Origin: Perognathus longimembris pacificus
Taxonomy: Eukaryota; Chordata; Mammalia; Rodentia; Heteromyidae
Direction: 5' to 3'
Assembly: GCF_023159225.1 (NCBI RefSeq)
Contig: NW_025959445.1
Coordinates: 1 to 64,000 of the forward strand
Length of the DNA stretch: 64,000 bases
Both the position numbers and the translations under genes were made by a program. The notes beneath the pieces are model-generated. The model was not told where the DNA came from. It was given only the letters and a program-made list of their open reading frames with translations, and made no database searches. Shown one piece after another: positions 29,971 through 37,210 of this stretch. The number at the start of each line of letters is the position of its first letter. Position 1 is the stretch's first letter.

Positions 29971-30113
29971 TGAAAGGTGTCCTCCAGCCAATATAGACCG
30001 CAAACATAGATTAGGCATGAACAGCCCCATTTTGTACCTCAACAATCTACAGAGCTGCAGCTGGAAAGAGCCAGAAACAAAATAGGATGCCTGTGGAGGG
30101 AGATACCAAATTG

Positions 30114-30220
30114 TTTATGGCTTGGAAAGATCGTAAAAGGGTCTTTAGGTCAGTTCCTGGCGCCGTTTATGGCTTGAGTACTGGAGAGATCGTAAAGGGG
30201 TCTTTAGGTCAGTTCCCGAC
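30114..30220 (+). promoter_or_regulatory. U3 imperfect direct repeat (enhancer-like)
   Basis: Two tandem units both begin 'tttatggcttg' and share 'agatcgtaaa' and 'gggtctttaggtcagttcc'; the second has an extra 'agtact' region. Repeated enhancers in this position are common in gammaretroviral U3. Function is inferred from position only. It is identical in the 3' LTR (36,838-36,944). Confidence 0.7.
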
Positions 30221-30258
30221 CCCTTCCTGAACCCTGTTCCTTGCCTTATTTGGGCTGT

Positions 30259-30394
30259 CCAATCAGAATCCCGTAACTATGCCTTTAGCTTCTGTAAGCC
30301 CGCTTCTGCAACCCCATAAAAACCCCTAGAAACCGAGCCCCGGCGCGCCATCCCTGCGAGGACTTGGACGCCCGGGTACCCGTCCCATAATAAA
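30259..30394 (+). promoter_or_regulatory. LTR promoter core and poly-A signal
   Basis: CCAAT (30,259), ATAAAAA TATA-like box (30,316) and AATAAA (30,389), spaced as in the murine-leukaemia-virus group, where R contains the poly-A signal. The same elements sit 6,724 bp downstream in the 3' LTR. Confidence 0.85.
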
Positions 30395-30488
30395 CCTCTT
30401 GCTTTTGCATCCATCGTGTGTCTCGCTGTTCCTTGGAGGGGTCTCTCTGACTGATCGACTTCCCCAAACTCGGGGGGGGTCTTTCAGC

Positions 30489-30506
30489 TGGGGGCTCGTC
30501 CGGGAT
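30489..30506 (+). other. Primer-binding site, tRNA-Pro type
   Basis: The 18 bases TGGGGGCTCGTCCGGGAT start two bases after the LTR. This is the proline-tRNA primer site of gammaretroviruses and appears undamaged. Confidence 0.95.
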
Positions 30507-31075
30507 AGAGACCCCCACCCAGGGACCACCGACCCACCGATGGGAGGTAAGCTGGCCAGCACTCTGTGTTGCTTCTGTGTTGTTTTTGTGAGGTTTCTGT
30601 ACTGCGCCTGCGTCTGCATCTGCACTAGTTGGCTAACTAGATCTGCATCTGGCGGACCCGTGGAGGAGCTGACGAGCTCAGGACTCCCGACCGCAGCCCT
30701 GGGAGACGTCCCAGTGGTGTCTGGGGCCAAGGTGGCCCATCTGTTGTCTGGGGCCAAGGTGGCCCATCTGTTGTCTGGGGCCAAGTATTTGGCCCACCAG
30801 CATTCTGTGAATCCTACCCAAATAGGACTGTTTGGGGCATCTCAGCTGTCCGACGGGTACGTGATTCTTCTGGGAGACGAGAGTAGCCGGGCTCTCACTA
30901 GGTCTCCATCTGAAGTTTTGTTTTCGGTACCGAAGCCGCGCCGCGAAAGTCTGTCTTGGTCTCGTCTCCCTGCTGTTCGTTTTGTCTGTCCTAGGACTCT
31001 GTATATCTCTTTTGTGTCAAACCTGCATAACCTGTTTTGTTACCTTGTCCTGTGTTTGTTGAATTCCTCCTAGGC
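30507..31075 (+). promoter_or_regulatory. Retroviral leader (packaging region) with splice donor
   Basis: A splice donor GGGAG|GTAAG lies at 30,546/30,547. A 27-bp tandem repeat occupies 30,719-30,787. 'accgaagccgcgccgcg' near 30,929-30,945 matches the pyrimidine-rich/GC leader of the murine-leukaemia-virus group. Packaging and internal ribosome entry signals normally reside here; their activity is inferred. An open frame 30,399-31,073 crosses the primer site and leader and is probably not translated. Confidence 0.8.
30719..30787 (+). repeat. 27-bp tandem repeat in the leader
   Basis: Unit starts 'gtctggggccaaggtggccc'; two full copies (30,719-30,745 and 30,746-30,772) and a partial third to 30,787. 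The copies are identical to each other, so the expansion is recent or kept homogeneous. Confidence 0.92.
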
Positions 31076-35774: not shown

Positions 35775-36217
35775 GGCTATTGCCCCAGCCCGTGGGGTTT
35801 CGTCAACAGGAGCCCGAGGGGGAATTGACCTGAATGAGAGACAAACCAGACACAAGGAGGGAGACCAAGACAGGATTCTGATCAAGGTCTCAAACTTTAT
35901 TTTTGCAGGGCAGCTTATATAGTAATCAGCAAAGGGTAACTCACATAGACAGCGTCATTAGGTTTCTAGGTTACAGAACTGTGGGATGTTCTTTCTCAGG
36001 ACAGGGACTGGATAAGTTCACAAGGTTGTTGATTAAAGCTGGACCAGATGTTAGGCTTAACAGGCAAAGTTGTAAAAGTATCAAGTGTCCTTATCGGTTA
36101 AGTCTTAGAGTTTCTTTATTTACAACATGAAAGCCAGACCCAGGTGTCCCTATCAGCTAAGTTCTGTAGTTTCTTTAAGTTACATCCAGACAGCTATTTT
36201 GGCTCCCGGCAGGCTAT
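35775..36217 (-). mobile_element. Nested solo ERV2 LTR, antisense, perfect 6-bp TSD
   Basis: GGCTAT flanks both ends (35,775-35,780 and 36,212-36,217). Between them, 35,781-36,211 (431 bp) has TG...CA ends. Read on the minus strand it starts TGCCGGGAGCC, has a TATATAAG box (35,914-35,921), AATAAA (35,896-35,901) followed by a 'gagaccttgatcagaatcc' R/U5-like stretch, and ends GGGGCA. Start, end and R region resemble IAP/ETn-class rodent LTRs. Six-base duplications fit ERV2. A solo LTR arises by recombination of a full provirus. Confidence 0.9.
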
Positions 36218-36399
36218 AATATAAATAGGTAAATAGGGCCAGAATTGGGGGTTCGATGTGAAACTTCTGTACCTGCATCTGCGGGGTTAAGGGACTTATG
36301 TGATGCCATCTAAATGTTAACCAGAAAGATCTCATATCTTTAACTGCTTGATTCCCTCGCTGAGATGGTTTTGTAGGTAAAGCCTGGATTTGTTCATGT
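36218..36399 (+). other. Interior between solo LTR and env end
   Basis: Noncoding 180 bp. The env frame is open back only to about 36,364, so the disulfide-loop and fusion-peptide parts of the transmembrane subunit are absent. Confidence 0.6.
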
Positions 36400-36660
36400 G
36401 TGGCCTTAGGAACAGCAGGGTTGTTTGAGAGTTGGTTCACCAGGTCCCCCTGGTTTACAACCCTAATCTCCACTTTGTTGGGACCCCTTACCATTGTTCT
36501 GTTAATTCTGCTTTTTGGCCCTTGCATTCTTAATAGGCTAGTACAGTTCATGAAAGATAGAATGTCTGTTATACAAGCCTTAGTACTTACCCAACAGTAT
36601 CACCAACTAAGGCAACAAGAGCCTGAGACCGGCCGAGAAACGGCTCTCCTGGTTGAATAA
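36400..36660 (+). pseudogene. env: env transmembrane-subunit C-terminal fragment
   Basis: An uninterrupted 86-codon frame beginning without an ATG (GTG at 36,400) and ending at TAA 36,658-36,660. It reads the membrane-proximal segment ('GLFESWFTRSPWFTTL'), the hydrophobic span and the cytoplasmic tail through the 'VLTQQYHQLR' region of a gammaretroviral transmembrane Env. The surface subunit, cleavage site, fusion peptide and Cys loop are all missing, so it cannot act as an envelope. Its closeness to known gammaretroviruses while the rest is noncoding suggests recombination with, or descent from, a coding virus. It may be retained because the cis-acting polypurine tract lies just after it. 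Confidence 0.88.
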
Positions 36661-36679
36661 AAGATTTTATTCAGTTCAA

Positions 36680-36694
36680 AGAAAAAGGGGGGAA
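36680..36694 (+). other. Polypurine tract
   Basis: The purine run AGAAAAAGGGGGGAA directly precedes the 3' LTR. It is the plus-strand priming site of the gammaretroviral replication pattern and looks undamaged. Confidence 0.93.
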
Positions 36695-37210
36695 TGAAAG
36701 GTGTCCTCCAGCCAATATAGACCGCAAACATAGATTAGGCATGAACAGCCCCATTTTGTACCTCAACAATCTACAGAGCTGCAGCTGGAAAGAGCCAGAA
36801 ACAAAATAGGATGCCTGTGGAGGGAGATACCAAATTGTTTATGGCTTGGAAAGATCGTAAAAGGGTCTTTAGGTCAGTTCCTGGCGCCGTTTATGGCTTG
36901 AGTACTGGAGAGATCGTAAAGGGGTCTTTAGGTCAGTTCCCGACCCCTTCCTGAACCCTGTTCCTTGCCTTATTTGGTCTGTCCAATCAGAATCCCGTAA
37001 CTATGCCTTTAGCTTCTGTAAGCCCGCTTCTGCAACCCCATAAAAACCCCTAGAAACCGAGCCCCGGCGCGCCATCCCTGCGAGGACTTGGACGCCCGGG
37101 TACCCGTCCCATAATAAACCTCTTGCTTTTGCATCCATCGTGTGTCTCGCTGTTCCTTGGAGGGGTCTCTCTGACTGATCGACTTCCCCAAACTCGGGGG
37201 GGGTCTTTCA
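36695..37210 (+). repeat. 3' LTR
   Basis: 516 bp, identical to the 5' LTR except T at 36,978. AATAAA at 37,113-37,118. Followed by TTAG (37,211-37,214). It lies about 170 bp upstream of the first promoter motif of the GTSF1-like gene and in the same orientation. Confidence 0.96.

What the first reader, a model, noticed from the sequence alone, without database searches (positions are those of the whole stretch)
29971..37210. Structurally complete, very young, coding-empty gammaretroviral element (VL30-like)
Both LTRs are 516 bp with one mismatch (30,254 G against 36,978 T). TTAG target duplication, tRNA-Pro primer site, splice donor, leader and polypurine tract are all undamaged, yet the 6.2-kb interior has no gag or pol frame. 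Near-identical LTRs mean recent insertion, so an element without its own enzymes was mobilised recently, presumably by a helper gammaretrovirus. VL30 in mouse and rat is the known parallel; whether this family is described in this lineage I cannot tell.
Basis: partly seen in the sequence, partly recalled or inferred. Interest (0 to 1): 0.88.

Follow-up and report, generated by a model that had tools for sequence, protein, structure and literature searches.

The report
Gene-free retrovirus riding a helper
This DNA, likely from a rodent, holds a retrovirus-like element that keeps both viral ends and a match to a viral RNA-packaging signal but has lost its genes, with about 4.8 kb of unidentified sequence in their place; its near-identical ends suggest that it was likely copied recently, probably by proteins borrowed from a related virus.

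Summary
In detail: 516-bp LTRs with one mismatch, TTAG duplication, primer site, splice-donor-like site and polypurine tract are present. The interior is not quite gag-free: it keeps a broken gag start (33 residues, 31498-31596; Gag_MA E 6.4e-5, PDB 1mn8 E 1.4e-4) and an intact frame for the end of env (from 36418; TLV_coat E 1.7e-16), whose homology begins abruptly. Between them lie ~4.8 kb without a detected pol piece (45 of 49 forward pieces scanned), holding a SINE 21-27% diverged from window relatives and an antisense solo LTR with a 6-bp duplication. Rfam's gammaretroviral packaging signal matches at 30618-30718 (97.8 bits, cut-off 93). The CpG-rich leader, outside the LTRs, argues against an old provirus with homogenised LTRs. 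Best reading: a non-autonomous gammaretroviral element that works like mouse VL30 or ETn, probably mobilised in trans. It is not shown to be VL30: PSF motifs are missing and it is longer. Copy number, helper and host species stay undetermined, because the genome search did not complete; the suspected host lineage (Geomyoid rodent) rests on a recalled SINE type. New member of a known kind.

The parts
29967..29970 (.). TTAG, 5' copy of the 4-bp target duplication
29971..30486 (+). 5' LTR, 516 bp; TATA-like CATAAAA at 30315, AATAAA at 30389
30489..30506 (+). primer binding site (tRNA-Pro type, recalled assignment)
30545..30551 (+). splice-donor-like AGGTAAG
30551..30560 (+). perfect 10-nt palindrome, candidate dimerisation stem-loop
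30618..30718 (+). match to the gammaretrovirus core encapsidation signal RF00374, with two GACG-loop hairpins
   Evidence: 97.8 bits, gathering 93, E 9.1e-15
30487..31073 (+). leader, GC 0.557, CpG o/e 0.55
31498..31596 (+). remnant of the start of gag (matrix residues 2-34 of 1mn8 numbering), isoleucine at the Met position, frame closed by a stop shortly after
   Evidence: Gag_MA E 6.4e-5, below cut-off; PDB 1mn8 E 1.4e-4
31610..36417 (+). non-coding payload of unknown origin (includes the SINE and the nested LTR)
   Evidence: no retroviral domain other than the gag start in 45 of 49 forward pieces or 10 reverse pieces
33462..33545 (+). SINE stretch, 73-79% identical to three other window SINEs
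35775..36217 (-). antisense solo LTR-like block 35781-36211 (TG...CA) with GGCTAT on both sides
36418..36660 (+). end of env (transmembrane subunit) in an intact frame, with stop
   Evidence: TLV_coat E 1.7e-16; 83% identity to the nearest protein over 70 residues, abrupt start
36680..36694 (+). polypurine tract
36695..37210 (+). 3' LTR, 516 bp
37211..37214 (.). TTAG, 3' copy of the target duplication

Best explanation
This is a 7.24-kb gammaretroviral element with near-identical LTRs and its cis-acting replication signals present, with only a broken start of gag, an end of env and no detected pol, and it was likely copied recently by proteins that a helper gammaretrovirus would have supplied in trans. 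Shown: both LTRs, the 4-bp duplication, primer site, splice-donor-like site, packaging-signal match and polypurine tract; retroviral sequence that stops near gag codon 34 and resumes abruptly at the end of env; an unidentified non-coding payload between them. Inferred: the 5' LTR drives a full-length RNA that dimerises and is packaged through its MLV-type signal, is reverse transcribed from a tRNA-Pro primer and is integrated by the helper's enzymes. Also inferred: the element arose when recombination replaced gag-pol-env by unrelated sequence, as has been proposed for ETn/MusD and for the mysTR-related families of the deer mouse.
For: LTRs differ at 1 of 516 sites, 0.14-0.44 My under three assumed rates, upper 95% limits 0.77-2.45 My. 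RF00374 matches over its whole length, E 9.1e-15; both GACG hairpins are present, and one such hairpin (stem of 5 or more) occurs in the rest of the window on both strands. The leader, outside the LTRs, has 25 CpG in 587 bp; 0 of 556 overlapping same-size windows outside the element reach that (maximum 10). Env end: intact frame, Pfam 1.7e-16, 83% identical to the nearest protein over 70 residues. In the 12 best tblastn rows the match starts at 36418 each time, although 9 of those 12 proteins have 39 or more residues before it: a junction, not gradual decay. Gag start. No pol piece in what was scanned, while the same piecewise method finds gag or dUTPase in 3 of 6 pieces of a decayed ERV at 18.4-19.8 kb. 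Precedents: VL30 with MLV (PMC6466679 passages; PMC4997597 passages), ETn with MusD (PMC10089650 section 7).
Against: One copy only: no second copy, helper or empty site was seen. The genome search gave no answer in 8 tries, and exact-pattern scans of viral and prokaryote collections found nothing, as expected for collections without mammals. The packaging-signal score is only 4.8 bits above Rfam's cut-off, and the leader as a whole folds no better than shuffles (z 0.08). Gag_MA is below Pfam's cut-off (23.2 against 30 bits). The control pieces (53-231 aa) were longer than most payload pieces, and 4 of 49 forward pieces were not scanned. One mismatch in 516 could also come from gene conversion.
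Confidence: 0.78

Rival explanations
1. A one-off defective recombinant: the same anatomy and the same trans-mobilisation, but made once during an infection and not part of a propagating family. This overlaps with the best explanation, which does not claim a family.
For: Only one copy was seen in the window, and no relative of the payload frame 34934-35134 was found among 5.8 billion proteins. The anatomy, gag start plus foreign block plus env end, is that of transducing retroviruses (recalled).
Against: The SINE 21-27% diverged from its window relatives and low CpG show that the payload is old; this fits a long-lived family, but equally a freshly captured piece of old host DNA.
Confidence: 0.3
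2. An old autonomous provirus that decayed in place, its two LTRs made alike by gene conversion.
For: Decayed-looking interior with a SINE and a nested solo LTR.
Against: The leader, outside the LTRs, keeps host-atypical CpG (25 in 587 bp, 0 of 556 outside windows); the env end is an intact frame with an abrupt start; the packaging signal still passes Rfam's cut-off; no pol piece was found while a decayed ERV nearby gives hits.
Confidence: 0.07
3. A true member of the VL30 family in a species where it has not been described.
For: LTR length, 4-bp duplication and Pro-type primer site are within the VL30 range (PMC4859993); polypurine tract 2 of 15 off the consensus.
Against: PSF motifs absent and total length outside the range. 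The authors found no conserved packaging motif in mouse VL30, while here RF00374 matches.
Confidence: 0.07
4. An assembly artefact: the second LTR or the interior misplaced.
For: Near-identical long repeats are where assemblers fail (general knowledge).
Against: The flanking TTAG duplication and the LTR ends are exact, the primer site and polypurine tract abut the right LTRs, and there is no N in the window.
Confidence: 0.03

Closest known systems
Mouse and rat VL30
   Same: Non-autonomous class I element without coding capacity; 4-bp duplications; LTRs of 436-681 bp; Pro-type primer site in 17 of 86 copies; packaged by MLV (PMC4859993 sections, PMC6466679 and PMC4997597 passages). A class II ERV nested in a VL30, and an allele keeping only its solo LTR, are known at the mouse agouti locus (PMC6466679 passages).
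   Different: PSF motifs absent; 7.24 kb; RF00374-type packaging signal; no pol piece found; an env end is kept, whereas NVL-3 and BVL-1 are said to show no evidence of env (PMC4859993).
ETn (mobilised by MusD) and nonautonomous mysTR-related ERVs of the deer mouse
   Same: Interior of an autonomous element thought to be replaced by non-homologous sequence; for mysTR-related families the best conserved region lies just before the 3' LTR; ETn uses MusD proteins in trans (PMC10089650 section 7).
   Different: Those are class II (betaretroviral); this one has gammaretroviral ends and packaging signal.
Transducing gammaretroviruses
   Same: Start of gag and end of env around a foreign block (comparison recalled).
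   Different: The payload encodes nothing recognised by Pfam in the pieces scanned, and its host origin is not shown.

Membership tests
Gammaretroviral (class I) element | Gammaretroviral packaging signal in the leader | tested here: met
   RF00374, 97.8 bits, cut-off 93
Gammaretroviral (class I) element | Gammaretroviral-type Env | tested here: met
   TLV_coat 60.5 bits, cut-off 22.5, profile positions 514-560 of 560 only
Gammaretroviral (class I) element | Gammaretroviral Gag | tested here: inconclusive
   Gag_MA E 6.4e-5 but 23.2 bits against cut-off 30; PDB 1mn8 E 1.4e-4
Gammaretroviral (class I) element | Reverse transcriptase phylogeny | not testable with these tools
   no pol piece found in the element
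VL30 | LTR of 436-681 bp and 4-bp duplication | tested here: met
   516 bp, TTAG; ranges from PMC4859993
VL30 | PSF-binding motifs (one or both in 82 of 86 full-length copies, per the abstract) | tested here: not met
   best + strand matches 8 of 22 and 13 of 30 mismatches
VL30 | Polypurine tract consensus | tested here: inconclusive
   2 of 15 mismatches; 68 of 86 mouse copies carry the consensus, 18 differ by one or two A/T substitutions
VL30 | Total length 4,075-6,321 bp | tested here: not met
   7,240 bp; about 6,803 without the nested LTR and one duplication
VL30 | Regions related to gag and pol with stops | tested here: inconclusive
   gag start yes; pol not found in 45 of 49 forward pieces
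VL30 | DNA similarity to VL30 sequences | not testable with these tools
   no VL30 sequence was available to compare
Non-autonomous element mobilised in trans | Cis signals kept, genes lost | tested here: met
Non-autonomous element mobilised in trans | Autonomous helper sharing the signals | not testable with these tools
   genome search unanswered in 8 tries
Non-autonomous element mobilised in trans | Several copies with the same junctions | not testable with these tools
   genome search unanswered in 8 tries

The most novel reading that the evidence does not exclude
A gammaretroviral counterpart of ETn: a transducing-retrovirus anatomy (broken gag start, foreign block, env end) whose cargo is non-coding host DNA, SINE included, propagated as a gene-free parasite of a gammaretrovirus still active in a non-murid rodent, and able to carry a nested LTR of another ERV class along with it.
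Probability: 0.27. Interest if true: 0.65.

Novelty: new member of a known kind. Interest (0 to 1): 0.42.

Why it matters
If true, a gene-free element that moved recently implies that a gammaretrovirus active in the germ line exists, or recently existed, in this lineage. Because it keeps an MLV-type packaging signal beside an abrupt loss of the genes, it would show which sequences suffice for trans-mobilisation of a class I element, and its two sharp junctions give a simple test for a family and for the origin of the payload.

Tried and rejected
Decayed gag-pol through the whole interior: rejected as far as piecewise Pfam can tell. Of 49 forward stop-to-stop pieces of 30 aa or more between 31074 and 36420, 45 were scanned and 1 has a retroviral match (the gag start). 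Four others have weak unrelated matches (E 0.039-0.22). The 4 not scanned start at 31180, 32078, 33271 and 35838. Of 10 reverse pieces none has a retroviral match and 2 have weak unrelated ones (E 0.022-0.18). Positive control: 3 of 6 pieces of a decayed ERV at 18.4-19.8 kb have retroviral matches; I chose that region because it looked like an ERV. The other 4 pieces of that call, near 50 kb, have none.

Host identity by a SINE scan timed out and gave nothing. The host guess rests on a recalled resemblance of the window's dimeric tRNA-type SINEs to those of Geomyoid rodents; the one paper looked at gave no sequence to check it (PMC5335264, passages). PMC4335370 (passages) lists Dipodomys ordii in an ERV count, without a description of elements.

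Relatives by collection: env end in viral contigs, none of 341 pattern stretches confirmed; primer site, LTR start and payload patterns, 0; LTR start in prokaryote genomes, 0. Payload frame 34934-35134 in the protein set: no candidate. The open frame across R-U5-leader found one 141-aa relative (52% over 29% of the query, E 1.6e-5), which I read as non-coding R-U5-leader DNA taken for protein; it shows only that a related leader exists elsewhere.

Excess folding of the leader: none.

Literature: 10 searches. In what they listed I saw no paper on a gene-free gammaretroviral element in kangaroo rats or their kin. One search held 575 papers and listed 5, none with the term VL30; one search found none. 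Lists were capped, and most subscription papers are not held, so this is weak evidence of absence. PMC2265474 (passages) added nothing used here.

Full report
What is there. The two LTRs (29971-30486, 36695-37210) are 516 bp and differ only at 30254/36978. TTAG flanks the element on both sides, and the 18-base primer site (30489), AGGTAAG (30545) and the polypurine tract (36680) lie where a provirus has them. Under assumed rates of 2.2e-9, 4.5e-9 and 7e-9 per site and year, one mismatch gives 0.44, 0.22 and 0.14 My, with upper 95% limits of 2.45, 1.20 and 0.77 My.

Packaging signal. Rfam's Gammaretrovirus core encapsidation signal matches 30618-30718 over its full length, 97.8 bits against a gathering score of 93, the only match at gathering score in the window. 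It includes two GACG-loop hairpins; one other such hairpin with a stem of 5 or more occurs in the rest of the window on both strands. A perfect 10-nt palindrome (30551-30560) and, by eye, a near-palindromic stem at about 30624-30639 complete the four-stem-loop arrangement described for MLV (PMC5874298, passages read). The leader as a whole does not fold better than shuffled sequence (z 0.08), so the case rests on the specific signal.

Gag and env. The frame 31414-31605 matches Gag_MA at E 6.4e-5, below Pfam's cut-off, and the solved MLV matrix protein 1mn8 from residue 2 to 34 of that chain, E 1.4e-4, with isoleucine at the Met position. The frame 36364-36657 matches positions 514-560 of 560 of TLV_coat at 1.7e-16. 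Of 167 homologous proteins 120 were listed. These 120 and P0121 were compared back by tblastn: of 130 alignments, 120 begin at or beyond the 36390 bin, 9 are weak reverse-strand matches near 36000 (E 0.019-0.088) and 1 is a weak match at 34284 (E 0.044). In the best 12 rows the match begins at 36418, although 9 of the 12 proteins have 39 or more residues before that point; in four of the proteins printed there that part is much alike. This is an abrupt junction.

The payload. Between about 31610 and 36417 no pol piece was found in 45 of 49 forward and 10 reverse pieces. The same method finds Gag_p24 (7.6e-5), dUTPase (1.1e-5) and Gag_p24_C (0.0086) in 3 of 6 pieces of a decayed ERV at 18.4-19.8 kb; those pieces are longer, so the control is favourable. 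The payload holds a SINE stretch (33462-33545) 73-79% identical to three window SINEs, which are 82-85% identical to each other. It also holds an antisense LTR-like block of 431 bp with TG...CA ends, TATAA and AATAAA on its own strand and a GGCTAT duplication. A 6-bp duplication is typical of class II elements (recalled); no relative of this LTR was found in the window. It resembles the mouse agouti alleles in which a class II ERV, or its solo LTR, sits inside a VL30 (PMC6466679, passages). Whether it came before or after the last copying event is open.

Composition. CpG observed/expected is 0.60 in the LTR, 0.55 in the leader, 0.19 and 0.11 in the two main payload parts and 0.29 in each flank. 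None of 556 overlapping 587-bp windows outside the element has as many CpG as the leader (25; maximum outside 10). LTR gene conversion would not keep the leader fresh, so decay in place with homogenised LTRs is unlikely. The payload is C-poor on the + strand (GC skew 0.242 and 0.136; outside mean -0.001, sd 0.063, maximum 0.189 in 106 overlapping 2-kb windows); this is unexplained.

Mechanism. Cis signals kept, genes lost and a recent copy together mean that the proteins probably came from elsewhere. The MLV-type packaging signal, the Pro-type primer site and the gammaretroviral ends point to a gammaretrovirus. This step is inferred; no helper was seen.

Comparison. It would work like VL30, which MLV packages (PMC4997597, PMC6466679, passages), and like ETn, mobilised by MusD (PMC10089650 section 7). 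That section also proposes, for class II elements of the deer mouse, replacement of the interior by non-homologous sequence, with the stretch before the 3' LTR conserved, which is the anatomy here. It fails VL30's PSF motifs and length, so it is not filed as VL30.

Limits. No host genome, relative or second copy could be examined. The host lineage is a recalled guess. One copy cannot tell a family from a single recombinant.

Noticed in passing
window 18681-19826 (+): Decayed ERV fragment with Gag_p24, Gag_p24_C and dUTPase matches, probably class II (inference).
   Followed up: partly
window 30718-30785: 27-bp unit repeated 2.5 times with 100% matches just after the packaging signal.
   Followed up: no
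window 30123-30157 and 30182-30216: 35-bp direct repeat (94% identity) inside the LTR, enhancer-like in position.
   Followed up: no
window 34401-35600: 1,200 bases without a CpG, inside a C-poor payload.
   Followed up: partly
window 49740-49990, 18914-19114, 12957-13174, 23920-24125: Dimeric tRNA-type SINEs, 78-85% alike, suggesting a Geomyoid rodent host (type recalled).
   Followed up: partly
window 49621-49725: AGG array of about 35 units.
   Followed up: no
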